Below, one piece after another: positions 11,260-62,321 of a DNA stretch of 64,000 bases. Below the pieces are notes generated by a model. It was not told the origin of the DNA. It searched no databases and worked only from the letters and a program-made list of their open reading frames with translations. The translations under genes and the position numbers were made by a program. The number at the start of each line of letters is the position of its first letter. Position 1 is the stretch's first letter. The DNA is from Cinnamomum chago (Eukaryota > Streptophyta > Magnoliopsida > Laurales > Lauraceae), in assembly GCA_038049695.1 (NCBI GenBank), contig CP142453.1, positions 32,964,501 to 33,028,500 of the forward strand, written 5' to 3'.

Positions 11260-11271
11260 TGGTATCAGAGC
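11260..11271 (+). other. Primer-binding site at block end
   Basis: TGGTATCAGAGC matches 12 nt of the complement of the initiator tRNA-Met 3' end. Here it forms the terminus of the block: the leader does not follow; instead comes filler and then inverted component B. Confidence 0.88.
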
Positions 11272-14200
11272 TAATCCCAATTGAAGATATTCCTTTTCCT
11301 CTTGGATGCATCTTTCTTCACCTTGTTTCTACCCTGTAAAAATTCACGAGATAGAAAATCGGGAAGAGAATTTGAAGAACCTTTTATATATTCAATGTCA
11401 AAATCAAAAATAGCAAGTAAAGCTTGCCAACGAGCAAAAATTTGTTTTGATGCAAGGTTTTTGACATCATTTTCCAAAACTTCTTTTGCTGATTTGCAAT
11501 CAATTCGTAAGAGGAATTTTTGATTCAAAATATCACTTTGAAATTTGAGTATGCATGAGACTATGGCAAGGACTTCTTTCTTTATTGTAGAGTAATTTTG
11601 TTGAGTAGTATTCCAAGTGCCAGAATAAAATCTAATAATTTGTTCCTTTGATTGTGCGGATCTTTGAAGTAGGATTCCACCAAATCCTATTTCTGAAGCA
11701 TCTGTTTGGATTATTTTAAATAAATCTGGATTTGAAATATTTAAGCATGGTAATGTTTTCACTTTTTGTTTTATTTTTTGTATTGCTTCTGTATGTTGAG
11801 GAGTCCATTGTTCTGCCGAATTTTTTAAACATTTTTGTAAAAGATTTCTTTCTTTAGAGAGGTTTTGATAAAAATCAGAGACATAATTTAAACACCCTAA
11901 AAATCTTTGTAATTGTTTTTTATCGGTGATTTCATCAGGGAAATTGTCAGCAAATTTGATTACTCTTTCAACAGGAGTTATCATTTTGTTTGATATTTTA
12001 TAGCCAAGAAATTGTATTTCTGTTTGAAAAAGTTTTATTTTTCTTTGAGAAAGGACTAAGCCATTTTTCTTTATGATCCATTTGAAAGTCTTTAAATGTT
12101 TCCAGTGATCATCAATAGATTTAGAAAAAATTAAAATATCATCAATGTAAACAATTGAGAAATTTTTATAAGGGTGAAAGATTTCATTCATCATTTCTTG
12201 GAAGGCTGAAGGAGCATTTTTTAGCCCAAAAGGCATGACGTTCCATTCATAATGGCCAAAAGGGACAGTAAAGGCGGTTTTATAACGATCATTTTCTTCG
12301 ACCTGTATTTGCCAAAATCCTGATTTGAGATCAAATTTTGAAAATATAAAAGCTTCATATAAACGAGTAATAAGATCTTGTTTATTAGGAATTGGATATC
12401 TAATTGATTGAAGGACTTTATTTAATGGTTTATAATTGATGACGAGGCGAGGAGCCCCTCGTTCCTTTTCAGGAGCATTTTCAACATAAAAGGCTGCACA
12501 ACTCCAAGGAGAATGTGATTTGCGGATTAATTTCTTTTGAAGTAAATCTTTAATTTCTTTATCACATAAGTCTAAGAGTCTAGGACTCATTTGAGATGGT
12601 CTTGCTTTAGTAGGAATATCTCTTTCATTAAAAGTAGAAATATATGGTAAGGATACTAGATGCTTTTTTCGATGCCAAAAGGCAGAAGGTATTTCAGAAC
12701 AACATTCATTTATTAGAGAGGTTTGAAAATTATTAATTTTATTTTCAGATGAATTTGATTTTAATTGATCTTCAATTCGACAGAGATAAATGTCATTTTT
12801 AAGATTTTCAATATATTTTTCTTTATTAGATATGAGTAGATTTATTTGATTGATTTTTCCAATATTTGAAAGTATAGAAACAGGTTGAAAATTAAGATTA
12901 GAAATTTTTTCAAAAGAGTTTTCTTCAATAAATTGTTTGAGAGTAATAGCATTAATGATGAATTTGTCTTGAGCACTTAATACATTTATTGAGGAATAGG
13001 AAGGATGTAATTCATTATGTTCTTCATGATCAGAGATGTTTTCTTCGAGATGAGTTTGTAAAATTGATGTTTTCGAGGTAGAGTCTGTAGAGAAGGATTT
13101 GTTTATAGAAGTTGTATTTAATGTATTTAATGTAGTAGTTGACTCTTTAGGAACTAAATTGAGAGTAGGTTGCGGGAAACTAGTTTTTAAAGAATTATTT
13201 ATTTCTTTATGTTTTATAGTTTCTAAAGGGGGGTGAACCGATTCAACTTTACCTTTCTCGGTTTCCCAGGTTTGTGTGGATTTATTAATTGTCATCATTA
13301 TAGTTCCTTTTTTATTTATTTTGGACGAAAGCCAATCAAAGAAAGGGATATTTCGCCGTTCTTGATTCATTTGTTCATACCATAATTCTTTTACTTGAGA
13401 TCGTTCAAATTTAGAGAATTTGGTAAAAAACCATTTTGTCTTTGGATGTTTTAATAAATCTTGTTGAAGGAATTGTTTATCAATTTTGAAATCATGTATT
13501 ACTTCATTAGATTCATGAATTAAGGAAATTGTATTAATTGATGCATTAAAATCGGATTCAGTTAATTTTACTGATTGTATATCTTCATCTTTTGCGCCTG
13601 AATAAACAGGGAAAGCTATGCCTGTAGGATGTATTGGGGGTGATGTGGGAATAGATGTTTGATGAAAATTAGAAGAGGCTGATTTATAAGATCCAGCGTC
13701 TGAAGGGATTGATCTTTTTGTGGATGAAAAGTGTGATCTTGGTGTATTGGCAAAATTTATTGTTACTTTTCCAGATGGATGTTCTGTAATAGATTCAACA
13801 TCTTCATTAATTAAAGGGGTGATTTGTTGAGCTTCATCAAGCTCCCATTTTCCAGAAAGATTTACATCTTCCCATGTGATGAGTTTGGGGGTGGTGACTT
13901 TATTTCGAAAATTTGTAAGGAATAAGGTGGTTACTCCTTTGATTTGAGATGAATATGCTATTTCAGGGATAATTGTATTCATTGCTTTATAATAAATTCT
14001 GTATACTATTGCAACATTTTGAGATTGAGGTTTCATATTGAATCCTTTTGTATGTATTCCTAAAGTGATGGCTTCATGAGCACCGGGATCACTGAGTGAT
14101 ACGGTGTAATTGGGGAAACAATTAAAAAAGGCAGGGCCGTCATGAAGACTGGCTTCTACCATCCCTATTAGGGAATCTCTGAATGAATTATGTCTTCTAT

Positions 14201-14618
14201 CTCGAACATATGCGAGACAGGATGTATTCAAACCAAGTCTGGTTAATGGCTTTATTGCAACTTGAACAAGTGCTAGATGCATGTATTTGTATTTTGATTT
14301 ATGGATTTCAATTTTTTCTGCAGGAATGACCTGTAGATTTTCTTCATTTTGCTGTATTGAGAGGGTTTCTTCAACCGTCTTTATTACATAATTTGATTTT
14401 TGTATGAAAGATCCTTCTTTATAAATTTCTTTTAAAGAGACTTTAGGTATTGTCCAATCTTGGATTGATTTTTCTAAATCATCAAAACTTATTTCTTCAA
14501 GATTTTTAATTGAAATTTTATTTATTATTGGCATGATGGATGATGAAGCAGAAGAAGAATTAGAAGCTGTGTTAGAAGATGAATTTCTTCCGAATGATCT
14601 AAAAATTCCAGACATCAT
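11271..14618 (-). CDS. ORF1-B polyprotein (movement protein, RT, RNase H), 1115 aa
   Basis: This is a full-length open copy of ORF1-B starting at the tandem ATG at 14618. Movement protein, RT and RNase H motifs are all present as in the copy at 26029-29373. The last residues are not native: the block ends at 11290 after KRKR, and the closing NIFNWD and stop are supplied by an 18-nt filler and the last base of the neighbouring primer site. Since only the basic tail is altered, the catalytic domains are unaffected. Sequence variants include KYMHLALVQ and NTIIPEIA. ORF2-B is missing downstream, so this unit cannot be a complete component B. Confidence 0.92.
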   Translation of the reverse strand: MMSGIFRSFGRNSSSNTASNSSSASSSIMPIINKISIKNLEEISFDDLEKSIQDWTIPKVSLKEIYKEGSFIQKSNYVIKTVEETLSIQQNEENLQVIPAEKIEIHKSKYKYMHLALVQVAIKPLTRLGLNTSCLAYVRDRRHNSFRDSLIGMVEASLHDGPAFFNCFPNYTVSLSDPGAHEAITLGIHTKGFNMKPQSQNVAIVYRIYYKAMNTIIPEIAYSSQIKGVTTLFLTNFRNKVTTPKLITWEDVNLSGKWELDEAQQITPLINEDVESITEHPSGKVTINFANTPRSHFSSTKRSIPSDAGSYKSASSNFHQTSIPTSPPIHPTGIAFPVYSGAKDEDIQSVKLTESDFNASINTISLIHESNEVIHDFKIDKQFLQQDLLKHPKTKWFFTKFSKFERSQVKELWYEQMNQERRNIPFFDWLSSKINKKGTIMMTINKSTQTWETEKGKVESVHPPLETIKHKEINNSLKTSFPQPTLNLVPKESTTTLNTLNTTSINKSFSTDSTSKTSILQTHLEENISDHEEHNELHPSYSSINVLSAQDKFIINAITLKQFIEENSFEKISNLNFQPVSILSNIGKINQINLLISNKEKYIENLKNDIYLCRIEDQLKSNSSENKINNFQTSLINECCSEIPSAFWHRKKHLVSLPYISTFNERDIPTKARPSQMSPRLLDLCDKEIKDLLQKKLIRKSHSPWSCAAFYVENAPEKERGAPRLVINYKPLNKVLQSIRYPIPNKQDLITRLYEAFIFSKFDLKSGFWQIQVEENDRYKTAFTVPFGHYEWNVMPFGLKNAPSAFQEMMNEIFHPYKNFSIVYIDDILIFSKSIDDHWKHLKTFKWIIKKNGLVLSQRKIKLFQTEIQFLGYKISNKMITPVERVIKFADNFPDEITDKKQLQRFLGCLNYVSDFYQNLSKERNLLQKCLKNSAEQWTPQHTEAIQKIKQKVKTLPCLNISNPDLFKIIQTDASEIGFGGILLQRSAQSKEQIIRFYSGTWNTTQQNYSTIKKEVLAIVSCILKFQSDILNQKFLLRIDCKSAKEVLENDVKNLASKQIFARWQALLAIFDFDIEYIKGSSNSLPDFLSREFLQGRNKVKKDASKRKRNIFNWD

Positions 14619-15905: not shown

Positions 15906-17081
15906 TTAGAATTCATCTGCTGCTCCAGACGGTGGCAGTGTTGCATCAGAATCATCTTTATTGACGGAACCATGAGAAGAAGATACTTCTTGAACGAATC
16001 CGCTGTATTTATTCATAAGGGGATTTCTGAGAAATAAAATTTCATTCTGCATACGCTGAATTTCTTTGAGAAGATCCATATGCTGCTGAGTATTGATTGG
16101 AGTTGCAGGAGATGAGGTTGTACCATGAACAGCATCTTTGAAGCTCTTTGATAATTTTGGATTAGGAGTGATCTGCTTCTTGATTTGAGGAATAGCGGTA
16201 TTGGGTTGTATAATAAGAGAAGCTTGAGGAGAGGAATGATGAGATTTATTGAGAAATTGAGAAACGTCAAATTTATCCCACCATTTAATATAAGAAATAC
16301 GAACAAAACATGATAGCTTCATTTCTTGGGATTTACCATATTCCCATCGGAAAATCCATGGAATAGTGGATGAAGAAATAAATTTTAAGAAAGAATATGA
16401 AGGTTCAGCAATTTCAAAACTGGATTGAGATTCAAATGCTTGATAATAGCTTAATAAAGCTTCTGGAAGGATGCAGGATTGAGCACCAAAACGGAGCCAC
16501 CAATTATGCCAGAACCAACAAGGAATATTTTGATTGCATTTGGATGAAAAGCTAAGGTACCAAGAATGAGATCGTTTTGAATTTTGATATAATAAAGTAT
16601 ATTCCCAAGCATTCATATAGTCATAGTAGTCATAGGGCCAAGAACTCCCATTGGGATTGGTGACAGTTTTTGGTGAGAATAGATTGTCGGCCCAATCAGT
16701 GATTGTATGAATATGCATAATCTTTATTTTTGAAAAGGCATGTTCTCCATCTCTATCTTCATGAGTGATGATAGCACTTTTTGACTGAATTAGAATAGCT
16801 TCATAGTACTTGTGAGAAATATTGGGGGCTTTTGGAACAAAATGGCAATTTTTTCTGTAGAGTTTTGAGAGAATTTGATCAATTGTAAGGTTGGCATGGA
16901 TTTTATCATCAAGGAAGAAAAGGGCATATTCAAAGATCTTTATGTATTGAGATTTTTTGAAAGGATTGGAACGATAGGGTGCTTGCAGCATGGGAGAAGG
17001 ATTTAAGGCATTGAATTTATTGTTGGAAAGAATATTTATTGTATCAATGACTGGATTTTTTCCTTTTCCTCTTGGATGCAT
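15906..17081 (-). CDS. ORF2-B, unknown protein of component B (391 aa)
   Basis: This is an intact copy, overlapping the 3' end of ORF1-B (17044) by 38 nt. It differs from the 29336 copy by one residue near position 255 (SQEMKLSCF here, SQEMKPSCF there). The tryptophan-rich middle and the C-terminal coiled coil are present. The function is unknown. Confidence 0.87.
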   Translation of the reverse strand: MHPRGKGKNPVIDTINILSNNKFNALNPSPMLQAPYRSNPFKKSQYIKIFEYALFFLDDKIHANLTIDQILSKLYRKNCHFVPKAPNISHKYYEAILIQSKSAIITHEDRDGEHAFSKIKIMHIHTITDWADNLFSPKTVTNPNGSSWPYDYYDYMNAWEYTLLYQNSKRSHSWYLSFSSKCNQNIPCWFWHNWWLRFGAQSCILPEALLSYYQAFESQSSFEIAEPSYSFLKFISSSTIPWIFRWEYGKSQEMKLSCFVRISYIKWWDKFDVSQFLNKSHHSSPQASLIIQPNTAIPQIKKQITPNPKLSKSFKDAVHGTTSSPATPINTQQHMDLLKEIQRMQNEILFLRNPLMNKYSGFVQEVSSSHGSVNKDDSDATLPPSGAADEF

Positions 17082-24763: not shown

Positions 24764-25633
24764 AATAAAGAAATATCTGTCTACATACAGCTCTATCAAA
24801 TGCATCTCATGCAAATTTCAATGCAGATCTCGCTATCGAATACAGCCTTCATCCACCTCCATGCAGAATTAATTCAGCAATACAGATGTCCGAATGCAAT
24901 TTTCAATGCAGTCCCCAAAGTCAGCACAGCTCTCCCCATGCAGCCATGTGTCCTGCAAATAATGAAGCTTCATTATCTCATTCATCAATTCCTAGCCTCC
25001 ATGAAGTCAAGCCATAATTTCTAGTCACCATCATGCTTTTATAAACAATACATGTCATTTTCATGTGCCTCACTCATATAAAGTTCTTTCGAATGCTTTC
25101 ATTTGAAAAAAGTATAAAAAATTCCAAAAGTCCACATTTGTGAGCTATGGATTACTATTCTTATTAAAGTATTCCATAGACCACTATTCCAAATAAAGTA
25201 TTATGGAATTCGAAGTCAACATTTCAGACTCAAGTCCCTGCAGTCTCCGCAGCTTCAGCTGAGCTTACAGTATATCCTGCACCCTGCAGCAAATACAGCG
25301 ATAAATTTATCAGCCGACTGTCAGACGCATGCAGCAGCAACAGTGATAAAGTCTGTCAGCAATGAAGTCAGTAATACAGTTCACTCATGCAGCAGCAACA
25401 GTAATGCATATTATATGCGACAGTGATACAGTACAAATGACGTATACATCTTATCCCATTGCGGATTTCAAATACATTTCAAATGTAATTCAGTATGAAG
25501 GTCTATAAATAGGGATTGTGAGCCCTTGTCTCACATCATCAAATACTTACACTTGTAAATTTTCCGCTTTCTTTCCCTTCTTTCAATTCAGTCTTACTTA
25601 GAGTTTACTGGTTCGGTCCCGGTCTCGTCGAAT

Positions 25634-25644
25634 TGGTATCAGAG
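25634..25644 (+). other. Primer-binding site, initiator tRNA-Met
   Basis: TGGTATCAGAG, followed by A instead of C, so the match to the tRNA 3' end is 11 nt plus a mismatch rather than 14. Confidence 0.88.
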
Positions 25645-25683
25645 ACATCCCAGTCTTCTCTTATTGTAAGAAATATTTTATCA

Positions 25684-25713
25684 ATGAAGTATCAATTCCT
25701 TTATCCATTTTGA
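25684..25713 (+). other. Short upstream ORF in leader (9 codons)
   Basis: ATG AAG TAT ... TTT TGA lies 40 nt downstream of the primer site and is repeated at the same place in other leaders. Caulimovirid leaders typically carry such short ORFs and bypass them by ribosome shunting; whether that happens here is inference. Confidence 0.45.
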
Positions 25714-26028
25714 TAGCTCTTTAAGCTTTCAATTATTTCAATTTATTTGCAAAATTTTGCATGCATCATGTCTCTTTCCTTCTTTGGTTATTTGTTTGTT
25801 GTTTGCATAGTAGATTCGAATCTATGTTAGGTAGCTGCATTTCTGAATTTTGATCTAACTTGACTAGATAGAGTTAATTGGTTGTTGTTGCTAAAAGGAG
25901 TGATTTGGGTCCGAGGCCCCCTTGTCGCGTCGCCTTTGTTGCCCGTTAGCCAGGAGAGCGTTTAGGGCTTTGTGGCGTAAATCGTTGACAGGCCACCAAT
26001 CATTCTGATTAGTGATTATAATTAATTA

Positions 26029-29000
26029 ATGATGTCTAGAATTTTTAGATCATTCGGAAGAAATTCATCTTCTAACACAGCTTCTAATTCTTCTTCTGCA
26101 TCATCATCCATCATGCCAATAATCAATAAAATTTCAATTAAAAATCTTGAAGAAATAAGTTTTGATGATTTAGAAAAATCAATCCAAGATTGGACAATAC
26201 CTAAAGTCTCTTTAAAAGAAATTTATAAAGAAGGATCTTTCATACAAAAATCAAATTATGTAATAAAGACGGTTGAAGAAACCCTCTCAATACAGCAAAA
26301 TGAAGAAAATCTACAGGTCATTCCTGCAGAAAAAATTGAAATCCATAAATCAAAATACAAATACATGCATATAGCACTTGTTCAAGTTGCAATAAAGCCA
26401 TTAACCAGACTTGGTTTGAATACATCCTGTCTCGCATATGTTCGAGATAGAAGACATAATTCATTCAGAGATTCCCTAATAGGGATGGTAGAAGCCAGTC
26501 TTCATGACGGCCCTGCCTTTTTTAATTGTTTTCCCAATTACACCGTATCACTCAGTGATCCCGGTGCTCATGAAGCCATCACTCTAGGAATACATACAAA
26601 AGGATTCAATATGAAACCTCAATCTCAAAATGTTGCAATAGTATACAGAATTTATTATAAAGCAATGAATACAATTGTCCCTGAAATAGCATATTCATCT
26701 CAAATCAAAGGAGTAACCACCTTATTCCTTACAAATTTTCGAAATAAAGTCACCACCCCCAAACTCATCACATGGGAAGATGTAAATCTTTCTGGAAAAT
26801 GGGAGCTTGATGAAGCTCAACAAATCACCCCTTTAATTAATGAAGATGTTGAATCTATTACAGAACATCCATCTGGAAAAGTAACAATAAATTTTGCCAA
26901 TACACCAAGATCACACTTTTCATCCACAAAAAGATCAATCCCTTCAGACGCTGGATCTTATAAATCAGCCTCTTCTAATTTTCATCAAACATCTATTCCC
27001 ACATCACCCCCAATACATCCTACAGGCATAGCTTTCCCTGTTTATTCAGGCGCAAAAGATGAAGATATACAATCAGTAAAATTAACTGAATCCGATTTTA
27101 ATGCATCAATTAATACAATTTCCTTAATTCATGAATCTAATGAAGTAATACATGATTTCAAAATTGATAAACAATTCCTTCAACAAGATTTATTAAAACA
27201 TCCAAAAACAAAATGGTTTTTTACCAAATTCTCTAAATTTGAGAGATCTCAAGTCAAAGACTTATGGTATGAACAAATGAATCAAGAAAGGCGAAATATC
27301 CCTTTCTTTGATTGGCTTTCGTCAAAAATAAATAAAAAAGGAACTATAATGATGACAATTAATAAATCCACACAAACATGGGAAACCGAGAAAGGTAAAG
27401 TTGAATCGGTTCACCCCCCTTTAGAAACTATAAAACATAAAGAAATAAATAATTCTTTAAAAACTAGTTTCCCGCAACCTACTCTCAATTTAGTTCCTAA
27501 AGAGTCAACTACTACATTAAATACATTAAATACAACTTCTATAAACAAATCCTTCTCTACAGACTCTACCTCGAAAACATCAATTTTACAAACTCATCTC
27601 GAAGAAAACATCTCTGATCATGAAGAACATAATGAATTACATCCTTCCTATTCCTCAATAAATGTATTAAGTGCTCAAGACAAATTCATCATTAATGCTA
27701 TTACTCTCAAACAATTTATTGAAGAAAACTCTTTTGAAAAAATTTCTAATCTTAATTTTCAACCTGTTTCTATACTTTCAAATATTGGAAAAATCAATCA
27801 AATAAATCTACTCATATCTAATAAAGAAAAATATATTGAAAATCTTAAAAATGACATTTATCTCTGTCGAATTGAAGATCAATTAAAATCAAATTCATCT
27901 GAAAATAAAATTAATAATTTTCAAACCTCTCTAATAAATGAATGTTGTTCTGAAATACCTTCTGCCTTTTGGCATCGAAAAAAGCATCTAGTATCCTTAC
28001 CATATATTTCTACTTTTAATGAAAGAGATATTCCTACTAAAGCAAGACCATCTCAAATGAGTCCTAGACTCTTAGACTTATGTGATAAAGAAATTAAAGA
28101 TTTACTTCAAAAGAAATTAATCCGCAAATCACATTCTCCTTGGAGTTGTGCAGCCTTTTATGTTGAAAATGCTCCTGAAAAGGAACGAGGGGCTCCTCGC
28201 CTCGTCATCAATTATAAACCATTAAATAAAGTCCTTCAATCAATTAGATATCCAATTCCTAATAAACAAGATCTTATTACTCGTTTATATGAAGCTTTTA
28301 TATTTTCAAAATTTGATCTCAAATCAGGATTTTGGCAAATACAGGTCGAAGAAAATGATTGTTATAAAACCGCCTTTACTGTCCCTTTTGGCCATTATGA
28401 ATGGAACGTCATGCCTTTTGGGCTAAAAAATGCTCCTTCAGCCTTCCAAGAAATGATGAATGAAATCTTTCACCCTTATAAAAATTTCTCAATTGTTTAC
28501 ATTGATGATATTTTAATTTTTTCTAAATCTATTGATGATCACTGGAAACATTTAAAGACTTTCAAATGGATCATAAAGAAAAATGGCTTAGTCCTTTCTC
28601 AAAGAAAAATAAAACTTTTTCAAACAGAAATACAATTTCTTGGCTATAAAATATCAAACAAAATGATAACTCCTGTTGAAAGAGTAATCAAATTTGCTGA
28701 CAATTTCCCTGATGAAATCACCGATAAAAAACAATTACAAAGATTTTTAGGGTGTTTAAATTATGTCTCTGATTTTTATCAAAACCTCTCTAAAGAAAGA
28801 AATCTTTTACAAAAATGTTTAAAAAATTCGGCAGAACAATGGACTCCTCAACATACAGAAGCAATACAAAAAATAAAACAAAAAGTGAAAACATTACCAT
28901 GCTTAAATATTTCAAATCCAGATTTATTTAAAATAATCCAAACAGATGCTTCAGAAATAGGATTTGGTGGAATCCTACTTCAAAGATCCGCACAATCAAA

Positions 29001-29373
29001 GGAACAAATTATTAGATTTTATTCTGGCACTTGGAATACTACTCAACAAAATTACTCTACAATAAAGAAAGAAGTCCTTGCCATAGTCTCATGCATACTC
29101 AAATTTCAAAGTGATATTTTGAATCAAAAATTCCTCTTACGAATTGATTGCAAATCAGCAAAAGAAGTTTTGGAAAATGATGTCAAAAACCTTGCATCAA
29201 AACAAATTTTTGCTCGTTGGCAAGCTTTACTTGCTATTTTTGATTTTGACATTGAATATATAAAAGGTTCTTCAAATTCTCTTCCCGATTTTCTATCTCG
29301 TGAATTTTTACAGGGTAGAAACAAGGTGAAGAAAGATGCATCCAAGAGGAAAAGGAAAAAATCCAGTCATTGA
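26029..29373 (+). CDS. ORF1-B polyprotein: movement protein, RT, RNase H (1114 aa)
   Basis: Replicase polyprotein of component B. The N-terminal ~473 residues, nearly identical to ORF1-A, hold a 30K-type movement protein (about residues 90-270; conserved SLSDPG with Asp177, then LGIHTKG), expected to move virus between cells. A B-specific Ser/Thr-rich linker follows, then RT (LVINYKPLN 725-733, FDLKSG with Asp763, YIDD 824-827) and RNase H with the DEDD set at 973, 1015, 1040 and 1087. There is no coat region, zinc knuckle, protease or integrase, unlike a normal caulimovirid polyprotein, so those must come from elsewhere, presumably component A. The start is the first of two tandem ATGs after TAATTAATTA. 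Two changes are private to this copy: Gly4 to Arg, and a Cys in VEENDCYKT (Arg elsewhere) within RT. Confidence 0.95.
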   Translation: MMSRIFRSFGRNSSSNTASNSSSASSSIMPIINKISIKNLEEISFDDLEKSIQDWTIPKVSLKEIYKEGSFIQKSNYVIKTVEETLSIQQNEENLQVIPAEKIEIHKSKYKYMHIALVQVAIKPLTRLGLNTSCLAYVRDRRHNSFRDSLIGMVEASLHDGPAFFNCFPNYTVSLSDPGAHEAITLGIHTKGFNMKPQSQNVAIVYRIYYKAMNTIVPEIAYSSQIKGVTTLFLTNFRNKVTTPKLITWEDVNLSGKWELDEAQQITPLINEDVESITEHPSGKVTINFANTPRSHFSSTKRSIPSDAGSYKSASSNFHQTSIPTSPPIHPTGIAFPVYSGAKDEDIQSVKLTESDFNASINTISLIHESNEVIHDFKIDKQFLQQDLLKHPKTKWFFTKFSKFERSQVKDLWYEQMNQERRNIPFFDWLSSKINKKGTIMMTINKSTQTWETEKGKVESVHPPLETIKHKEINNSLKTSFPQPTLNLVPKESTTTLNTLNTTSINKSFSTDSTSKTSILQTHLEENISDHEEHNELHPSYSSINVLSAQDKFIINAITLKQFIEENSFEKISNLNFQPVSILSNIGKINQINLLISNKEKYIENLKNDIYLCRIEDQLKSNSSENKINNFQTSLINECCSEIPSAFWHRKKHLVSLPYISTFNERDIPTKARPSQMSPRLLDLCDKEIKDLLQKKLIRKSHSPWSCAAFYVENAPEKERGAPRLVINYKPLNKVLQSIRYPIPNKQDLITRLYEAFIFSKFDLKSGFWQIQVEENDCYKTAFTVPFGHYEWNVMPFGLKNAPSAFQEMMNEIFHPYKNFSIVYIDDILIFSKSIDDHWKHLKTFKWIIKKNGLVLSQRKIKLFQTEIQFLGYKISNKMITPVERVIKFADNFPDEITDKKQLQRFLGCLNYVSDFYQNLSKERNLLQKCLKNSAEQWTPQHTEAIQKIKQKVKTLPCLNISNPDLFKIIQTDASEIGFGGILLQRSAQSKEQIIRFYSGTWNTTQQNYSTIKKEVLAIVSCILKFQSDILNQKFLLRIDCKSAKEVLENDVKNLASKQIFARWQALLAIFDFDIEYIKGSSNSLPDFLSREFLQGRNKVKKDASKRKRKKSSH

Positions 29374-30511
29374 TACAATAAATATTCTTTCCAACAATAA
29401 ATTCAATGCCTTAAATCCTTCTCCCATGCTGCAAGCACCCTATCGTTCCAATCCTTTCAAAAAATCTCAATACATAAAGATCTTTGAATATGCCCTTTTC
29501 TTCCTTGATGATAAAATCCATGCCAACCTTACAATTGATCAAATTCTCTCAAAACTCTACAGAAAAAATTGCCATTTTGTTCCAAAAGCCCCCAATATTT
29601 CTCACAAGTACTATGAAGCTATTCTAATTCAGTCAAAAAGTGCTATCATCACTCATGAAGATAGAGATGGAGAACATGCCTTTTCAAAAATAAAGATTAT
29701 GCATATTCATACAATCACTGATTGGGCCGACAATCTATTCTCACCAAAAACTGTCACCAATCCCAATGGGAGTTCTTGGCCCTATGACTACTATGACTAT
29801 ATGAATGCTTGGGAATATACTTTATTATATCAAAATTCAAAACGATCTCATTCTTGGTACCTTAGCTTTTCATCCAAATGCAATCAAAATATTCCTTGTT
29901 GGTTCTGGCATAATTGGTGGCTCCGTTTTGGTGCACAATCCTGCATCCTTCCAGAAGCTTTATTAAGCTATTATCAAGCATTTGAATCTCAATCCAGTTT
30001 TGAAATTGCTGAACCTTCATATTCTTTCTTAAAATTTATTTCTTCATCCACTATTCCATGGATTTTCCGATGGGAATATGGTAAATCCCAAGAAATGAAG
30101 CCATCATGTTTTGTTCGTATTTCTTATATTAAATGGTGGGATAAATTTGACGTTTCTCAATTTCTCAATAAATCTCATCATTCCTCTCCTCAAGCTTCTC
30201 TTATTATACAACCCAATACCGCTATTCCTCAAATCAAGAAGCAGATCACTCCTAATCCAAAATTATCAAAGAGCTTCAAAGATGCTGTTCATGGTACAAC
30301 CTCATCTCCTGCAACTCCAATCAATACTCAGCAGCATATGGATCTTCTCAAAGAAATTCAGCGTATGCAGAATGAAATTTTATTTCTCAGAAATCCCCTT
30401 ATGAATAAATACAGCGGATTCGTTCAAGAAGTATCTTCTTCTCATGGTTCCGTCAATAAAGATGATTCTGATGCAACACTGCCACCGTCTGGAGCAGCAG
30501 ATGAATTCTAA
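29336..30511 (+). CDS. ORF2-B, unknown protein of component B (391 aa)
   Basis: The reference copy. The ATG lies inside the last codons of ORF1-B in the +1 frame (38-nt overlap). The N-terminus is basic (RGKGKNPVID). The middle is rich in Trp and aromatic residues (WPYDYYDYMNAWEY, PCWFWHNWWLRFG, PWIFRWEYGK). A proline/serine-rich linker leads to a C-terminal heptad stretch (LLKEIQRMQNEILFL) that should form a short coiled coil, and the tail is acidic. It has no signal peptide and no catalytic motif. From memory it resembles W-rich plant hypothetical proteins often found next to caulimovirid RT genes; this is unverified. Translation may be by re-initiation or leaky scanning given the overlap. 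Function unknown; a virion-, transactivator- or transport-related role is only a guess. Confidence 0.88.
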   Translation: MHPRGKGKNPVIDTINILSNNKFNALNPSPMLQAPYRSNPFKKSQYIKIFEYALFFLDDKIHANLTIDQILSKLYRKNCHFVPKAPNISHKYYEAILIQSKSAIITHEDRDGEHAFSKIKIMHIHTITDWADNLFSPKTVTNPNGSSWPYDYYDYMNAWEYTLLYQNSKRSHSWYLSFSSKCNQNIPCWFWHNWWLRFGAQSCILPEALLSYYQAFESQSSFEIAEPSYSFLKFISSSTIPWIFRWEYGKSQEMKPSCFVRISYIKWWDKFDVSQFLNKSHHSSPQASLIIQPNTAIPQIKKQITPNPKLSKSFKDAVHGTTSSPATPINTQQHMDLLKEIQRMQNEILFLRNPLMNKYSGFVQEVSSSHGSVNKDDSDATLPPSGAADEF

Positions 30512-31798
30512 AATAAAGAAATATCTGTCTACATACAGCTCTGTCAAATGCATCTCATGCAAATCTCAATGCGGATCTCGCCATCTAAATGCAGCATGCA
30601 TCTACCCCCATGCTGAATTAATTCAGCCATACAGATGTCCAAAATGCAGTTGTCAATGCAGCCAGCACAGATGCAGTTTTTTCAATGCAGCCAGCACCGG
30701 TCTCCCCATGCAGCCATGTGTCATGCAAATAATAAAGCATCTTTATCTCATTTATCAATTCATAGCCTCCATGAAGTCAAGCCATACATACTTGTCACCA
30801 TCATGTGTTTATAAACAACACATGTCATTATCCTATGCCTCACTCACATAAAGGTCATTCGTATGCTCTCATTTTGTAGAATTATAAAAAATTCCAAAAG
30901 TCCACATTTGTGAGCTATGGATTACTATTCTTATTAAAGTATTCCATAGACCACTATTCCAAATAAAGTATTATGGAATTCGAAGTCAACATTTCAGACT
31001 CAAGTCCCTGCAGTCTCCGCAGCTTCAGCTGAGCTTACAGTATATCCTGCACCCTGCAGCAAATACAGCGATAAATTTATCAGCCGACTGTCAGACGCAT
31101 GCAGCAGCAACAGTGATAAAGTCTGTCAGCAATGAAGTCAGTAATACAGTTCACTCATGCAGCAGCAACAGTAATGCATATTATATGCGACAGTGATACA
31201 GTACAAATGACGTATACATCTTATCCCATTGCGGATTTCAAATACATTTCAAATGTAATTCAGTATGAAGGTCTATAAATAGGGATTGTGAGCCCTTGTC
31301 TCACATCATCAAATACTTACACTTGTAAATTTTCCGCTTTCTTTCCCTTCTTTCAATTCAGTCTTACTTAGAGTTTACTGGTTCGGTCCCGGTCTCGTCG
31401 AATTGGTATCAGAGACATCCCAGTCTTCTCTTATTGTAAGAAATATTTTATCAATGAAGTATCAATTCCTTTATCCATTTTGATAGCTCTTTAAGCTTTC
31501 AATTATTTCAATTTATTTGCAAAATTTTGCATGCATCATGTCTCTTTCCTTCTTTGGTTATTTGTTTGTTGTTTGCATAGTAGATTCGAATCTATGTTAG
31601 GTAGCTGCATTTCTGAATTTTGATCTAACTTGACTAGATAGAGTTAATTGGTTGTTGTTGCTAAAAGGAGTGATTTGGGTCCGAGGCCCCCTTGTCGCGT
31701 CGCCTTTGTTGCCCGTTAGCCAGGAGAGCGTTTAGGGCTTTGTGGCGTAAATCGTTGACAGGCCACCAATCATTCTGATTAGTGATTATAATTAATTA
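30512..31798 (+). promoter_or_regulatory. B-type intergenic region: 3' UTR, promoter, leader
   Basis: It joins ORF2-B to ORF1-A, so an A unit is placed under a B-type promoter. TATAAATA is at 31274-31281, the expected start near 31305-31308, the primer site at 31404-31414, and the leader runs to 31798. The promoter and leader are virtually the same as those at 25150-26028. Confidence 0.8.
31404..31414 (+). other. Primer-binding site, initiator tRNA-Met
   Basis: TGGTATCAGAG followed by A, sharing the C-to-A change with the site at 25634; the two units therefore share recent ancestry. Confidence 0.88.
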
Positions 31799-34700
31799 AT
31801 GATGTCTGGAATTTTTAGATCATTCGGAAGAAATTCATCTTCTAACACAGCTTCTAATTCTTCTTCTGCATCATCATCCATCATGCCAATAATCAATAAA
31901 ATTTCAATTAAAAATCTTGAAGAAATAAGTTTTGATGATTTAGAAAAATCAATCCAAGATTGGACAATACCTAAAGTCTCTTTAAAAGAAATTTATAAAG
32001 AAGGATCTTTCATACAAAAATCAAATTATGTAATAAAGACGGTTGAAGAAACCCTCTCAATACAGCAAAATGAAGAAAATCTACAGGTCATTCCTGCAGA
32101 AAAAATTGAAATCCATAAATCAAAATACAAATACATGCATATAGCACTTGTTCAAGTTGCAATAAAGCCATTAACCAGACTTGGTTTGAATACATCCTGT
32201 CTCGCATATGTTCGAGATAGAAGACATAATTCATTCAGAGATTCCCTAATAGGGATGGTAGAAGCCAGTCTTCATGACGGCCCTGCCTTTTTTAATTGTT
32301 TTCCCAATTACACCGTATCACTCAGTGATCCCGGTGCTCATGAAGCCATCACTCTAGGAATACATACAAAAGGATTCAATATGAAACCTCAATCTCAAAA
32401 TGTTGCAATAGTATACAGAATTTATTATAAAGCAATGAATACAATTGTCCCTGAAATAGCATATTCATCTCAAATCAAAGGAGTAACCACCTTATTCCTT
32501 ACAAATTTTCGAAATAAAGTCACCACCCCCAAACTCATCACATGGGAAGATGTAAATCTTTCTGGAAAATGGGAGCTTGATGAAGCTCAACAAATCACCC
32601 CTTTAATTAATGAAGATGTTGAATCTATTACAGAACATCCATCTGGAAAAGTAACAATAAATTTTGCCAATACACCAAGATCACACTTTTCATCCACAAA
32701 AAGATCAATCCCTTCAGACGCTGGATCTTATAAATCAGCCTCTTCTAATTTTCATCAAACATCTATTCCCACATCACCCCCAATACATCCTACAGGCATA
32801 GCTTTCCCTGTTTATTCAGGCGCAAAAGATGAAGATATACAATCAGTAAAATTAACTGAATCCGATTTTAATGCATCAATTAATACAATTTCCTTAATTC
32901 ATGAATCTAATGAAGTAATACATGATTTCAAAATTGATAAACAATTCCTTCAACAAGATTTATTAAAACATCCAAAAACAAAATGGTTTTTTACCAAATT
33001 CTCTAAATTTGAGAGATCTCAAGTCAAAGACTTATGGTATGAACAAATGAATCAAGAAAGGCGAAATATCCCTTTCTTTGATTGGCTTTCGTCAAAAATA
33101 AATAAAAAAGGAACTGTAATGATGACTATTAATAAATCCACACAAACATGGGAAACCGAGAAAGGTAAAGTTGAATCGGTTCACCCCCCTTTAGAAACTA
33201 TAAGGCATAAAGAAATCACTGCCACTCCATTTAAAAATGCTCTGCCAACTTCTAAACTCCTTACTGTTGAACATATATCTCATCTAGTTGAACAAAGTAA
33301 CTTTACAAATCTCTATTTACAGACTATTGGTTCACAAACTCAAAGAATTGAAAATACTATATCTCAACACGAATCAACTTCTTCAGCTCCGTATAAAATA
33401 TCCAGAGATGTCCCTTCATTATGTTCAGAATTTATTACAAAATTGACTTTAGACAAAAGGCCATTAAAACTCCCTGCTGACTTTCAAAATGACATTTCTT
33501 TAAGAATCAATCCTTTAGACAAAGGTAAATCAATAAATGAAGGCTCCTCAATTAATGCAGTCATTGAAGGAACATCAATTCAAATGTCTTCAGACACTCA
33601 TACTGACACTTCAACAGATGACTCTGACGATCAATGTATCCCTGAAATTAATAGAATTTTCAATCCTAAAACTCATACATCAAAAACAAAAAATTATTAC
33701 AGTAGACCCACTCCAATGAATCTCCAATTTGAAGAAATTCCTGATATAGCAAATTGTAAATATGATGGTAGTTCATTAGTCGAATGGAATATTGATGGAC
33801 TTACTGAATATGGAATTCTTAATATTCTGCGCAATATGATACTATATACAAATGCAGGCATGATCTATGGCAATACACAAGCTGAAATCATTAAATCAAT
33901 AATAATTGGATTTACTGGCCAACTTCATGGCTGGTGGGAATATTATCTAACCTCAATCCAAAAAACTAGTATCCTAAATTCAGTCAAACTAACTGAAGAA
34001 GGTAAACCCATTATTAATACCAATAATCAGCCAATTTCTAATGCTGTTGAAACACTAATTCATAATATTTTAATCAATTTTTCTGGAAATGTTAGTGATC
34101 AAATTGAAAAATACAGAGAACAATTAATCAATCTTCGATGTCGAACTTTATCTGATTTCAGATGGTATAAAGATGTCTTTTTATCCCTTGTTTTTCAATT
34201 ATTCAATTCTAATGAAGATTTCTGGAAAGAAAAATTTATTTCTGGCCTTCCAACTCATTTTGCAGAAAAAGTAAAAAATGTTCTACGAGAACAAAATAAT
34301 GGACGATTAAATTATGCTAACTATACATATGGTGATTTAATTCAAAAAATTTCTCGTGTTGGTATGTCTATTTGCAGTGATATGAAAATTAAAGCCGATT
34401 TACATAAACAAAAGAAAATTGGTAAACAAGAATTAGGGGATTTTTGCTATCAATTTGGCTATGAACCCCTACAAAATCCATCCAATCGAATTTATCAACA
34501 TAAACATCGGTCTAAAAAGAAACGATATCATGAAAAATCATATCGATCCTATAAAAATTACAAAAAATATAAAAAAGGAAACCATGAAAAACACAATTCA
34601 AAGAAGCGAAAATCCAGCTCGTCCCCAAATCATAAAACTAATAAATCTGATTACACATGCTATAAATGCGGCAAAGAAGGACATTTTGCAAATAACTGTT

Positions 34701-35665
34701 TTAATAAAGATTCAAAAAAGAAAATCAATGAATTAGATTATCATTCTCATAATTCCGAAAATAATAAAGATATTTGTATATGTTGCGAAAGCGAAGATAG
34801 TTCTTATGATTCTTCCTCCTCATCTTCTTATTTCTCCATTAATGTTTTAAATGCTCAAGATGAATTACTTCTGGAATTAATAGAAAACATTTCCTCTGAA
34901 GAAGAAAAGAAAAAATATTATAGAAAAATGCTTGAAGATAAATCTACTGACAAAACCTCAAAGAAACATAAAGATTTTCAATCACTTTCAATGAAAGATA
35001 TTCTTTCCCAAAAACCAAGCTCTTCAAAACCTTTAAACCTTCAAGATCTCCATAATGAAGTTAATGAAACAAAACATGAAATTGCAAACTTAAAAGAAGA
35101 AGCAACTAAAGAAATTGCTAAATTAAAAACAAGAATTGAAATCCTTGAATTAGGTAAAGAATTTAGCTCAAATAATCAAGAAGATTCTAATTTAGAAAAA
35201 GAATTTGATGAAGAAATTCAAGAATTCGTAAATTCCATCACTAAATATCATTATCATAAATGGTATACTACTGTCACTCTAAAAATCAAAGAATTTAATT
35301 TATCTGTTGACTGTTTAATTGACAGTGGAGCAGATGTAAATTGCATCCGTGAAGGATTAATTCCAACAAAGTATTTTGAAAAAATAAAAAATTACACCAT
35401 TGGCACAGCAAATGGAAAGAATATAATAGTCAATTATAAGATTCCAAATGCCCATATCTGTAAAAATGGAAAATGCATTCAAACTTCCTTTGCTGTAACA
35501 AAAACATTAACGAATGATGTCATTTTAGGGACACCCTTCTTATTAAAAATTCAGCCATTTTCTGTAAATACCGATGGAATTCATACATCAATTGATGATA
35601 AGCCTATCAAATTTGAATTCATAGAAAGCCCACGGCTTGGTAGAATAAATGGAATTAATACTTAA
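31799..35665 (+). CDS. ORF1-A polyprotein: movement, coat, protease (1288 aa)
   Basis: Structural polyprotein of component A. Residues 1-473 repeat the movement-protein half of ORF1-B. Then come an A-specific segment, a coat-like region around HGWWEYYL (710-717), a basic Lys/Arg-rich stretch, the CX2CX4HX4C zinc knuckle CYKCGKEGHFANNC (Cys954, Cys957, His962, Cys967), a Ser-rich acidic piece, the motif SINVLNAQDE (1013-1022), a long coiled coil (about 1081-1121) and a retropepsin-like protease with DSGA at 1175-1178 and ILGTPFLL downstream. The reading frame stops soon after, with no RT or RNase H. In other caulimovirids the protease is followed directly by RT, so its absence here is the defining oddity. 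The basic stretch (KKYKKGNHEK, KKRKSSSSP) is a variant of that in the other A copies. Confidence 0.94.
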   Translation: MMSGIFRSFGRNSSSNTASNSSSASSSIMPIINKISIKNLEEISFDDLEKSIQDWTIPKVSLKEIYKEGSFIQKSNYVIKTVEETLSIQQNEENLQVIPAEKIEIHKSKYKYMHIALVQVAIKPLTRLGLNTSCLAYVRDRRHNSFRDSLIGMVEASLHDGPAFFNCFPNYTVSLSDPGAHEAITLGIHTKGFNMKPQSQNVAIVYRIYYKAMNTIVPEIAYSSQIKGVTTLFLTNFRNKVTTPKLITWEDVNLSGKWELDEAQQITPLINEDVESITEHPSGKVTINFANTPRSHFSSTKRSIPSDAGSYKSASSNFHQTSIPTSPPIHPTGIAFPVYSGAKDEDIQSVKLTESDFNASINTISLIHESNEVIHDFKIDKQFLQQDLLKHPKTKWFFTKFSKFERSQVKDLWYEQMNQERRNIPFFDWLSSKINKKGTVMMTINKSTQTWETEKGKVESVHPPLETIRHKEITATPFKNALPTSKLLTVEHISHLVEQSNFTNLYLQTIGSQTQRIENTISQHESTSSAPYKISRDVPSLCSEFITKLTLDKRPLKLPADFQNDISLRINPLDKGKSINEGSSINAVIEGTSIQMSSDTHTDTSTDDSDDQCIPEINRIFNPKTHTSKTKNYYSRPTPMNLQFEEIPDIANCKYDGSSLVEWNIDGLTEYGILNILRNMILYTNAGMIYGNTQAEIIKSIIIGFTGQLHGWWEYYLTSIQKTSILNSVKLTEEGKPIINTNNQPISNAVETLIHNILINFSGNVSDQIEKYREQLINLRCRTLSDFRWYKDVFLSLVFQLFNSNEDFWKEKFISGLPTHFAEKVKNVLREQNNGRLNYANYTYGDLIQKISRVGMSICSDMKIKADLHKQKKIGKQELGDFCYQFGYEPLQNPSNRIYQHKHRSKKKRYHEKSYRSYKNYKKYKKGNHEKHNSKKRKSSSSPNHKTNKSDYTCYKCGKEGHFANNCFNKDSKKKINELDYHSHNSENNKDICICCESEDSSYDSSSSSSYFSINVLNAQDELLLELIENISSEEEKKKYYRKMLEDKSTDKTSKKHKDFQSLSMKDILSQKPSSSKPLNLQDLHNEVNETKHEIANLKEEATKEIAKLKTRIEILELGKEFSSNNQEDSNLEKEFDEEIQEFVNSITKYHYHKWYTTVTLKIKEFNLSVDCLIDSGADVNCIREGLIPTKYFEKIKNYTIGTANGKNIIVNYKIPNAHICKNGKCIQTSFAVTKTLTNDVILGTPFLLKIQPFSVNTDGIHTSIDDKPIKFEFIESPRLGRINGINT

Positions 35666-35761
35666 TTGCATACATCTCCATATTTCCAAAATACAGTTTT
35701 TTATTGCATCACTACAGATTTTTATAACTAATTTCCATTTTCTTCCCTTAGGGAACCAGTC

Positions 35762-35995
35762 ATGTCTTCTAAGGATAAAGGCAAACAACCCATAGATTCA
35801 GATAAAGCCTCTGTTCCTGTTAATGAAGAACTACCCTTTCAAATACCTTTTCCATCCTTCTATCCAGCACCCTCTGCTACTTCTCAAACCCTTATTGATA
35901 ATATTTGGAGTGCATGCCTTTCTGGCCAACGTAATTTTCTAATGCGAAAGCACATCTCTGATTTGTCAAATCATATCAAATACTTACACTTGTAA
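35762..35995 (+). pseudogene. ORF2-A, 3'-truncated and fused to leader
   Basis: The first ~74 residues of ORF2-A, up to SNHIKY, then a switch at the 8-nt microhomology ATCAAATA (35975-35982) into the 5' leader, giving a chance stop at 35995. Two variants occur: SATSQTL and CLSGQRN (SAASQTL and CLTGQRN elsewhere). The lost part includes most of the protein and the whole 3' UTR and promoter. Confidence 0.9.
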
Positions 35996-36081
35996 ATTTT
36001 CCGCTTTCTTTCCCTTCTTTCAATTCAGTCTTACTTAGAGTTTACTGGTTCGGTCCCGGTCTCGTCGAATTGGTATCAGAG
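35975..36081 (+). other. Strong-stop-like segment: transcription start to primer site
   Basis: 107 nt corresponding to the leader from just after the predicted transcription start to the tRNA primer site (TGGTATCAGAG, 36071-36081), joined directly to an ORF2-A interior. The TATA box and everything upstream are missing. Its limits are those of minus-strand strong-stop DNA. Confidence 0.8.
36071..36081 (+). other. Primer-binding site at block end
   Basis: TGGTATCAGAG; the block stops here and the next bases (ATTTTTTGAAAGG) are inverted component B, sharing GAG at the join. Confidence 0.87.
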
Positions 36082-36211
36082 ATTTTTTGAAAGGATTGGA
36101 ACGATAGGGTGCTTGCAGCATGGGAGAAGGATTTAAGGCATTGAATTTATTGTTGGAAAGAATATTTATTGTATCAATGACTGGATTTTTTCCTTTTCCT
36201 CTTGGATGCAT
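36080..36211 (-). pseudogene. ORF2-B, first 44 codons only
   Basis: The N-terminal piece of ORF2-B, from MHPRGKGKNPVID to SNPFKKS, cut at the inverted join with the primer site of block 4. Confidence 0.85.
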
Positions 36212-61175: not shown

Positions 61176-62321
61176 TTAATCATTTATGAGGTAGTAATCT
61201 GGTGGTTGTGGACTGGGGGTCCATACTCCATAATCATTTTCTCTTTGGAAGAGCTTGATAAGCTGTCTCTTTGTTCTTTCAGTAATATGAAGAGACGATG
61301 CATTTTGAAATGTTTCTAGAATTTCATCAAGAACTGTATGGCCAGCTCGAAAGGGATCATAATAAACAAATGTATCTTCTGCAAGATCTTCATCAATGCA
61401 GACGACGCGACGACCATCGCTCCAGATTCCCTTAAAAGTACGAGCAAATTCGAAATGTCTTTTGAGATTGATGAATCTTTGATTTTGATCAGCTTGAATA
61501 TTGTAGAATTGTAGACGCTCCAGGCTGTAACTGAGATCTGCAGCATCTGAGGATTCAAATTGTTCTGCTTGATTCCAATTGCGATCAGGAAGATGTTCAT
61601 AATCATTGATTGGAAGGCTGTATTTCTGACAGAATAAATCTCCGTCTTCATAATTCATAAGGATCCATAATTGATATGGTTGATAAAACCGGAATTCATC
61701 TCTTTCTCCAAGAGTGGAAGAGATTGTCATGAGAAGATTGCGCTTGGTGATGCCAAGGCAACTGAGAGCATATTTGACAATTGCAGGCAACTGTCGATGA
61801 ATTGCTAAATTGTCTCTGTCGAGAATGAATCGATGAACTAGACCTTGTTCAATATAAGAAATATCAAATTCATCAGCGGGCAGGAACATCTTTGGAAAAC
61901 CAGTGGCCCAGCTGAGATAGGATGCTTGATTAATTAGTCGCTCCATGATCTGACAAGAGAGAGTTTCCTCTCTAATTCTTGCAGATAAATCGTCCGGAAG
62001 AAGAGTATTAACCCTTTCCAGGATTTGGTTTCTGTATTCAATTGGAGGGAGGGGTGACGATGCACATTGCTGTTCAAGCATTTGAATTTTTGATTCTAAA
62101 TATTTGATATGATTTGACAAATCAGAGAGGTGCTTTCGCATTAGAAAATTACGTTGGCCAGTAAGGCATGCACTCCAAATGTTATCAATAAGGGTTTGAG
62201 AAGCAGCAGAGGGTGCTGGATAGAAGGATGGAAAAGGTATTTGAAAGGGTAGTTCTTCATTAACAGGAACAGAGGCTTTATCTGAATCTATGGGTTGTTT
62301 GCCTTTATCCTTAGAAGACAT
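61176..62321 (-). CDS. ORF2-A, unknown protein of component A (381 aa)
   Basis: Intact; the protein is the same as that of the 54833 copy, as expected for a tandem duplicate. It is preceded by the usual 96-nt gap after ORF1-A. The function is unknown. Confidence 0.86.
   Translation of the reverse strand: MSSKDKGKQPIDSDKASVPVNEELPFQIPFPSFYPAPSAASQTLIDNIWSACLTGQRNFLMRKHLSDLSNHIKYLESKIQMLEQQCASSPLPPIEYRNQILERVNTLLPDDLSARIREETLSCQIMERLINQASYLSWATGFPKMFLPADEFDISYIEQGLVHRFILDRDNLAIHRQLPAIVKYALSCLGITKRNLLMTISSTLGERDEFRFYQPYQLWILMNYEDGDLFCQKYSLPINDYEHLPDRNWNQAEQFESSDAADLSYSLERLQFYNIQADQNQRFINLKRHFEFARTFKGIWSDGRRVVCIDEDLAEDTFVYYDPFRAGHTVLDEILETFQNASSLHITERTKRQLIKLFQRENDYGVWTPSPQPPDYYLIND

What the first reader, a model, noticed from the sequence alone, without database searches (positions are those of the whole stretch)
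25634..36081. Split (bipartite) pararetrovirus: coat/protease on one component, RT/RNase H on the other
Seen: every ORF1-A has coat, knuckle and DSGA protease but stops before RT; every ORF1-B has RT and RNase H but no coat, knuckle or protease. Both carry the same movement protein, promoter, leader and primer site. The split recurs in many copies with intact frames and both have unit-length copies (5770 bp and about 6.34 kb), so it is not random decay. Known: bipartite organisation has been reported for some florendoviruses and is otherwise unknown in Caulimoviridae. Inference: the two components complement each other, with A supplying coat and protease and B supplying polymerase.
Basis: partly seen in the sequence, partly recalled or inferred. 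Interest (0 to 1): 0.88.

Follow-up and report, generated by a model that had tools for sequence, protein, structure and literature searches.

The report
Two-part endogenous plant pararetrovirus
A plant chromosome holds many fossil copies of a virus whose genes are divided between two DNA molecules, one with the coat and protease and one with the copying enzyme; this layout is already known from a few plant virus fossils, and older copies here suggest the division lasted a long time.

Summary
The window is packed with rearranged copies of two viral units. The RT unit (about 5770 bp) has movement protein, RT, RNase H and ORF2R, but no coat, knuckle or protease. The coat unit (6343 bp) has movement protein, coat, knuckle, protease and ORF2C, but no RT. 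They share about 2.6 kb. In the host genome (1.06 Gb) ORF2R and ORF2C matches form 59 clusters, 29 with both. Of 131 protease matches none lies in an open frame above 1298 aa, so no intact single-genome ORF was found; decayed ones are not excluded. Older copies keep the split. The movement-protein gene does not sort by component. Both arms show purifying selection. A divergent relative in the same genome is also split, but its RT component still carries a protease. Added details: an ORF2C with no detectable relation to ORF2R, a long-lived split, and later loss of protease from the RT component. Complementation is inferred, not shown.

The parts
24804..27446 (+). shared block in the RT unit: intergenic region plus ORF1 codons 1 to about 472
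   Evidence: blastn 97.4% to 30512-33216 and to 61157-58524
25634..25645 (+). tRNA-Met primer binding site, RT unit
   Evidence: pattern with up to 1 mismatch, 9 sites in window against 0.17 expected
26029..29373 (+). RT component ORF1 (1114 aa): MP, DUF7588, linker, RT, RNase H; no coat, knuckle or protease match
26218..26670 (+). movement protein domain PF01107 in the RT component
   Evidence: E 4.7e-19
27646..27774 (+). probable deletion scar: segment matching coat-component ORF1 aa about 1010-1064
   Evidence: 32%, E 0.005 here; 50-56% in old copies L015 and L010
28180..28653 (+). reverse transcriptase domain
   Evidence: PF00078 E 8.5e-39; YIDD at 28498
28840..29235 (+). RNase H domain
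   Evidence: PF17919 and PF17917
29336..30511 (+). ORF2R (391 aa), overlaps ORF1 in another frame
   Evidence: 38-41% to ORF2 of divergent relative L009
30552..33216 (+). shared block in the coat unit
31404..31415 (+). primer binding site, coat unit
31799..35665 (+). coat component ORF1 (1288 aa): MP, DUF7588, DUF7746, coat, zinc knuckle, aspartic protease; no RT match
34112..34420 (+). caulimovirus coat domain PF22909
   Evidence: E 6.7e-9
34655..34702 (+). CCHC zinc knuckle
   Evidence: PF00098; motif at 34658
35273..35554 (+). retropepsin-type aspartic protease, DSGA motif
   Evidence: PF00077 E 1.2e-6; motif at 35315
35762..35989 (+). truncated ORF2C (aa 1-76) of this coat unit
36071..36082 (+). 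primer binding site at which this viral block ends, against an inverted RT copy
54833..55978 (-). ORF2C (381 aa), intact copy of the coat unit's second gene
56075..59941 (-). coat component ORF1, intact copy in a head-to-tail coat dimer (spacing 6343 bp)
61176..62321 (-). ORF2C of the next coat unit in the dimer
11271..14618 (-). RT component ORF1 in a head-to-tail RT dimer (spacing 5770 bp), 3' end truncated
15906..17081 (-). ORF2R of the same RT dimer

Best explanation
These are endogenous copies of a bipartite caulimovirid of the florendovirus type. Each component has its own core promoter, tRNA-Met primer site and movement protein, so each could be transcribed and reverse transcribed. The RT unit (published component A) supplies RT, RNase H and ORF2R; the coat unit (component B) supplies coat, knuckle, protease and ORF2C. 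The RT polyprotein carries no protease and would have to be cut in trans by the coat unit's protease (inferred). The shared 5' block is kept alike by repeated exchange between the two while they replicate in the same cells, most simply by template switching (inferred). Linear or concatenated products, some ending at the primer site, were captured in the chromosome as mixed arrays (sequence shows the ends; the route is inferred). The split is old: it is present in decayed copies and in a divergent relative in which protease is still on both components. The order read from this is that RT was confined to one component and coat to the other, and the RT component later lost its protease.
For: Complementary domains. 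Against the Manihot protease-RT protein P0052, the coat unit's protease aligns to residues 61-230 and the RT unit resumes at 227. Genome-wide: ORF2R 107 and ORF2C 108 matches in 59 clusters, 29 with both; commonest spacings 5739-5798 and 6343 bp. None of 131 protease matches in an open frame above 1298 aa. Old copies keep the split. On a movement-protein tree of 18 copies the R/C label changes 8 times, the most possible with 8 C copies. Purifying selection in both arms: R 20 synonymous to 15 nonsynonymous changes, p 4.9e-6 to 8.9e-4; C 15 to 16, p 9.5e-4 to 0.031, over transition weights 1 to 8. Intergenic mosaics R4 and R5. Divergent relative also split: MP-coat-protease-ORF2C in one locus, DUF7588-protease-RT-RNase H-ORF2 without coat in two others, one also with MP.
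Against: Complementation, encapsidation and trans cleavage are not shown. Co-location of both types in 29 of 59 clusters is what shuffled labels give (933 of 5000 reach it). Mosaics could come from gene conversion within arrays. The RT and P0052 genome searches scored only 99 of 16,429 and 62 of 15,937 candidates, and the latter missed two protease-RT copies of the relative later read by fetching. A helper virus outside this genome cannot be excluded. ORF2C shows no detectable relation to ORF2R, unlike the published grapevine component B. In the movement-protein tree L010 R is closer by raw identity to three other copies (90.6%) than to L013 C (89.2%), and 447 of 5000 shuffles reach 8 changes, so the tree shows absence of sorting, not an excess of mixing. 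The selection test used pieces, dropped two copies with stops, and left out truncated copies; the short ORF1-ORF2R overlap is in two pieces.
Confidence: 0.8

Rival explanations
1. Both units are defective deletion derivatives of a monopartite helper virus; they were copied in trans by the helper and integrated, and never formed a self-sufficient pair.
For: R looks like a full ORF1 with coat and protease deleted, with a scar between; C looks like ORF1 cut after the protease. Geering 2014 also could not discount a helper.
Against: No intact single-genome ORF among 131 protease matches; the same split in copies of very different age and in a divergent relative; purifying selection in both arms, which a parasite of a helper would not need in coat, protease or RT.
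Confidence: 0.12
2. The units behave as endogenous retroelements: copies are re-transcribed from chromosomal arrays, complement each other inside the plant and re-integrate, with little or no exogenous infection.
For: Large arrays and series of copies of many ages on 12 contigs; dimers of more than unit length in arrays.
Against: No integrase domain in the pieces scanned; the movement protein is retained on both units and shows fewer nonsynonymous changes than neutral (6 synonymous, 5 nonsynonymous, p 0.019 at equal rates), which suggests cell-to-cell spread.
Confidence: 0.2
3. The arrays are an assembly artefact, or the two classes result from rearrangement after integration of one genome.
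For: Arrays of near-identical repeats are hard to assemble; one chimeric junction joins a coat arm to an RT arm with most of the protease missing (L027 8680-9501).
Against: Each class has a second ORF that the other lacks; the same two organisations recur in decayed loci with few copies (L010, L014, L020, L029).
Confidence: 0.03

Closest known systems
Vitis vinifera B virus and D virus, bipartite florendoviruses (Geering et al. 2014, PMC4241990; passages read)
   Same: Component A with RT and deleted coat (and sometimes deleted MP and protease), component B with MP, coat and protease and no RT; 5.5-6.9 kb units; near-identical intergenic region and MP; compound insertions.
   Different: Grapevine component B is one polyprotein whose C-terminal extension is homologous to ORF2 of A. 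Here the coat unit has a separate ORF2C without detectable relation to ORF2R.
Oryza sativa B virus and Sorghum bicolor virus (same paper; passages read)
   Same: Same overall A/B structures, ORF2 homologues described as more divergent.
Bipartite florendoviruses of sugar beet (named in review PMC10377300; passages read; the paper I looked up for them was not held)
   Same: Reported as bipartite endogenous florendoviruses.
   Different: No details could be compared.
Vitis vinifera A virus, proposed non-segmented parent of VvinBV (PMC10377300; passage read)
   Same: A related virus in the same host genome that bears on how the split arose.
   Different: The relative found here (L009, L030-L034) is itself split and keeps protease on both components.
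Begomovirus DNA-A and DNA-B with a common region (recalled, no call)
   Same: Works like it in that two genome parts share a noncoding control region kept alike by exchange.
   Different: Unrelated single-stranded DNA viruses; here the shared block also holds a movement protein gene.

Membership tests
Caulimoviridae (endogenous) | MP, coat with knuckle, retropepsin and RT-RNase H of caulimovirid type, no integrase | tested here: met
   Pfam PF01107, PF22909, PF00098, PF00077, PF00078, PF17919 across the two units; no integrase hit in the pieces scanned
Caulimoviridae (endogenous) | tRNA-Met primer binding site in the leader | tested here: met
   9 sites with up to 1 mismatch, 0.17 expected
Florendovirus | ORF1 polyprotein MP-coat-protease-RT-RNase H in one ORF | tested here: not met
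   Domains are divided between two units; met only when the two are taken together, as in the published bipartite members
Florendovirus | second ORF of unknown function, 45-58 kDa, usually in another frame than ORF1 | tested here: met
   ORF2R 391 aa overlaps ORF1 in another frame; homologous to ORF2 of relative L009; mass not computed
Florendovirus | RT groups in the florendovirus clade | tested here: inconclusive
   RT piece 59-67% to RT proteins of Vitis, Manihot, Solanum, Daucus, Dionaea and Prunus, above the 55% clustering used in PMC5766536, but no labelled reference sequences or tree were available
Bipartite florendovirus | two classes of 5.5-6.9 kb, A with RT and without coat, B with MP, coat and protease and without RT | tested here: met
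   5770 and 6343 bp units
Bipartite florendovirus | intergenic region over 90% and MP over 87% identical between components | tested here: met
   97.4% over 2.6-2.7 kb for the pairs; but some R/C pairs fall to about 86% in the first 600 columns of the intergenic region
Bipartite florendovirus | component B carries a region homologous to ORF2 of component A | tested here: inconclusive
   No BLASTP or profile similarity of ORF2C to ORF2R or L009 ORF2, best hhalign E 0.12; such fast-evolving proteins may be related beyond detection
Bipartite florendovirus | many loci, some with both components | tested here: met
   59 clusters, 29 with both
Bipartite florendovirus | components replicate by complementing each other | not testable with these tools
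   inferred in the literature as well

The most novel reading that the evidence does not exclude
A long-lived, diversified lineage of bipartite reverse-transcribing viruses, not a failed experiment. The two components evolve in concert through exchange of a shared block holding the movement-protein gene. At least two related viruses in one host inherited the same split and the same coat-component gene ORF2C. Gene partition proceeded in steps, with protease first on both components and later on one only.
Probability: 0.6. Interest if true: 0.68.

Novelty: new member of a known kind. Interest (0 to 1): 0.52.

Why it matters
The 2014 report said bipartite florendoviruses may represent unsuccessful attempts. 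Here the split outlasts the divergence of two viruses (RT 80%, coat 55%, ORF2C 61% amino-acid identity) and is present in copies of many ages. That makes the evolution of divided genomes in reverse-transcribing viruses testable from one plant genome, including which gene was lost when and how the shared region stays alike. It also gives a coat-component gene, ORF2C, with only two relatives found at E 0.001 among 5.8 billion proteins.

Tried and rejected
Structure prediction of ORF2R (alone) and ORF2C (alignment of 4) gave mean pLDDT 35 and 39, so no fold search was made. Viral contig scans with ORF2C, the RT piece and an RT alignment found no relative. ORF2R had no relative at E 0.001 in the protein database. 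I first read L009 as a monopartite relative because protease and RT are contiguous there; fetching the next 3.5 kb and regions up- and downstream of the protease in two other loci showed a split relative instead, so that reading was dropped. The carrot protein P0117, with DUF7588 and RT, looked like an RT component but has RT before MP, so it is not informative. Co-location above chance was tested and not found. A changed residue in the protease motif of one decayed relative copy was seen and not interpreted.
Full report
WHAT IS THERE. The 64 kb window is filled almost entirely with copies of two viral units, in blocks of both orientations. Published naming is component A for the RT part and B for the coat part. 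R has ORF1R of 1114 aa with MP, DUF7588, RT and RNase H, and ORF2R of 391 aa overlapping it in another frame. C has ORF1C of 1288 aa with MP, DUF7588, DUF7746, caulimovirus coat, zinc knuckle and retropepsin, and ORF2C of 381 aa starting about 100 nt after it. A motif scan finds 5 protease motifs and 5 knuckles, in C arms, and 8 YIDD motifs, in R arms. The linker of R has no protease match. Head-to-tail spacing is 5748-5770 bp for R and 6343 bp for C.

SHARED AND UNIQUE PARTS. R and C share one block of about 2.64 kb: the intergenic region and ORF1 codons 1 to about 472, 97.4% identical in the pairs. Beyond it blastn finds no further match between the arms. The primer site occurs 9 times in the window with up to one mismatch (0.17 expected), and a TATA-like motif 130 alignment columns upstream is present in 9 of 9 intergenic copies. 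The roughly 600 columns upstream of that fall into two haplotypes 86-88% identical. The four copies downstream of ORF2C carry haplotype A or close to it. Of the five downstream of ORF2R, three carry B and two (R4, R5) are A/B mosaics. Of seven intergenic regions with an identified ORF2 and ORF1 on either side, three join different components.

WHERE THE CUT LIES. In a Manihot protein with protease and RT contiguous (P0052), the C protease aligns to residues 61-230 at 42% and the R linker resumes at residue 227 at 46%. The cut is thus between protease and RT, with almost no overlap. Within the R linker a segment matches C residues about 1010-1064, just before the protease: 8 of 11 copies matched, at 50% (E 1e-11) and 56% (E 6e-10) in old copies L015 and L010 and 32% (E 0.005) in the window; the best of 200 shuffles gave 23.9 bits against 25.0 to 52.0. 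I read this as a scar: R lost coat and protease from a fuller ORF1.

SELECTION. Among window copies, distinct changes in pieces of the R arm plus ORF2R are 20 synonymous and 15 nonsynonymous, and in pieces of the C arm plus ORF2C 15 and 16. Under equal rates p is 4.9e-6 and 9.5e-4; with transitions weighted 8-fold p is 8.9e-4 and 0.031. MP alone gives 6 and 5, p 0.019. One RNase H copy and one MP copy with stops were dropped, truncated copies were not entered, and stretches between pieces were not used. The changes between copies thus arose mainly while the proteins were under constraint.

THE REST OF THE GENOME. The window lies in an unnamed assembly of 1.061 Gb in 14 contigs. ORF2R has 107 matches (359 candidates, 106 scored) and ORF2C 108 (227 candidates, 108 scored). 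With a 100 kb gap they form 59 clusters on 12 contigs: 29 with both, 16 R only, 14 C only. This degree of co-location is not above shuffled labels (933 of 5000). The commonest spacings of complete neighbours are 5739-5798 bp for R (11 of 14) and 6343 bp for C (7 of 21). For a single-genome form I used three probes. The RT piece scored 99 of 16,429 candidates, no open frame above 1131 aa. P0052 scored 62 of 15,937 candidates, 61 starting at residue 217-249, after its protease, and one at 140; two open frames of 1186 and 1453 aa at C4:34.60 Mb also cover ORF2R. One search is not exhaustive: two copies with protease next to RT, found later, were not in it. The best control is a protease piece of the relative: all 146 candidates scored, 131 matches, longest open frame 1298 aa. 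80 of the 131 are followed by a listed ORF2C within 900 nt; the other 51 include the relative's RT-linked proteases and were not each examined. So an intact single-genome ORF was not found; a decayed one is not excluded.

OLD COPIES. I mapped the pieces on 20 further loci, L010-L029. Decayed copies keep the split: R without coat or protease in L010, L015, L017, L019, L020, L021 and L022, and C without RT in L013, L014, L015, L016, L019, L022 and L029 (some truncated; the C copy of L019 also lacks the protease). One exception is a junction in L027 (8680-9501) that runs from a C arm cut early in the protease into an R linker and RT; its pieces are 94-98% identical to window copies and it looks like a recent array rearrangement. 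A tree of the MP-DUF7588 stretch from 18 copies (10 R, 8 C; from the window I took two of each) does not sort by component: L019 R and C 99.8%, L017 R and L016 C 96.1% (one locus), and between different loci L015 R with L014 C 88.6%, and L010 R grouped with L013 C (89.2%, support 0.86, although L010 R is 90.6% to three other copies). The label changes 8 times, the most possible; shuffles average 6.2 and 447 of 5000 reach 8. If the two components had evolved apart the label would change once. Continued exchange between co-replicating components explains this best; gene conversion inside a locus could explain the same-locus pairs but not the others.

A RELATIVE WITH THE SAME SPLIT. The P0052 exception is C3:21.97 Mb (L009, L030). 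One strand has protease, linker, RT (80% to R), RNase H (72%) and an ORF2 of 390 aa, 38-41% to ORF2R and overlapping RNase H in the same way. The other has MP (64%), DUF7588, DUF7746, coat (55%) and protease (43%), followed by an ORF2C relative at 61% over 331 aa. The two proteases are about half identical to each other. At C10:57.38 Mb, MP (partial) and DUF7588 run directly into the protease segment with no coat between (L032), and protease, RT, RNase H and ORF2 follow (L033). At C1:97.44 Mb the same holds from DUF7588 on (L031, L034). The MP-DUF7588 stretch of L032 is 93.6% identical in DNA to that of the coat piece in L009. So this relative is also bipartite, with protease on both components; its further copies (C6, C12) were not read. 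The window's R lacks protease; the simplest order is loss after the split.

ORF2C. It has two relatives at E 0.001 in 5.8 billion proteins, 81% (P0121, EukProt transcript assembly) and 59% (P0122), plus the relative's copy at 61%. Against ORF2R or the relative's ORF2 the best profile match has E 0.12 over 21 columns. It may be a distinct gene or an ORF2 diverged past recognition.

ENDS AT THE PRIMER SITE. Of ten block 3' ends that I could draw in the window, four lie in or within 8 nt of the primer site: 36082 (at its last base), 53986, about 45219 and 11279. This is where minus-strand synthesis starts (general knowledge of pararetroviruses), so some integrated molecules were probably linear reverse-transcription products. 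The count rests on my own drawing of blocks and has no computed control.

COMPARISON. Geering et al. 2014 (PMC4241990; passages read) describe this kind of pair in grapevine, rice and sorghum, with components of 5.5-6.9 kb, near-identical intergenic region and MP, and compound insertions. The review PMC10377300 (passages read) adds sugar beet. PMC9719215, PMC5766536 and PMC13308828 were read as passages. Eight searches of the open-access library were made; in their listings and in the passages read I saw no report of an unrelated second gene on the coat component, of concerted evolution of the components over time, or of protease on both components of one virus. Grapevine component A loses protease only sometimes, so the last may already be in the paper's figures, which are not held. 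Most subscription papers are not held either. The window is thus a new member of a known kind, with added evidence that the kind can persist and diversify.

WHAT IS NOT SHOWN. Complementation, trans processing, packaging and the host species. Placement in Florendovirus rests on ORF layout and RT identity of 59-67% to named plant proteins, not on a tree with references.

Noticed in passing
G000 C4:70.92-71.22 Mb; L023: A long tandem array with 4131-bp period of an RT-unit variant: ORF1R frame mostly 1118 aa open, ORF2R match cut at aa 161 and about 330 nt left before the next movement protein. It looks satellite-like.
   Followed up: partly
G000 C6:13692985-13719127; L024: Six coat-unit copies spaced exactly 5000 bp, lacking most of the movement protein.
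   Followed up: partly
L027 8680-9501: Chimeric junction from a coat arm, cut early in the protease, into an RT-unit linker and RT.
   Followed up: partly
window 22443-22467: Short TTTATAGATA repeat in the 74-bp filler between two viral blocks, reminiscent of the published bias of florendoviruses to TA repeats.
   Followed up: no
window 29336-30511 and 54833-55978: Both ORF2 proteins begin with a lysine-rich KGKxP[IV] stretch, the only profile match between them; possibly chance.
   Followed up: partly
G000 C4:34.58-34.61 Mb: RT copies in which ORF1R and ORF2R matches lie in one open frame of 1186 or 1453 aa.
   Followed up: no
P0121: A relative of ORF2C at 81% comes from a transcript assembly in EukProt, so a coat-type component may be transcribed in another host.
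   Followed up: no
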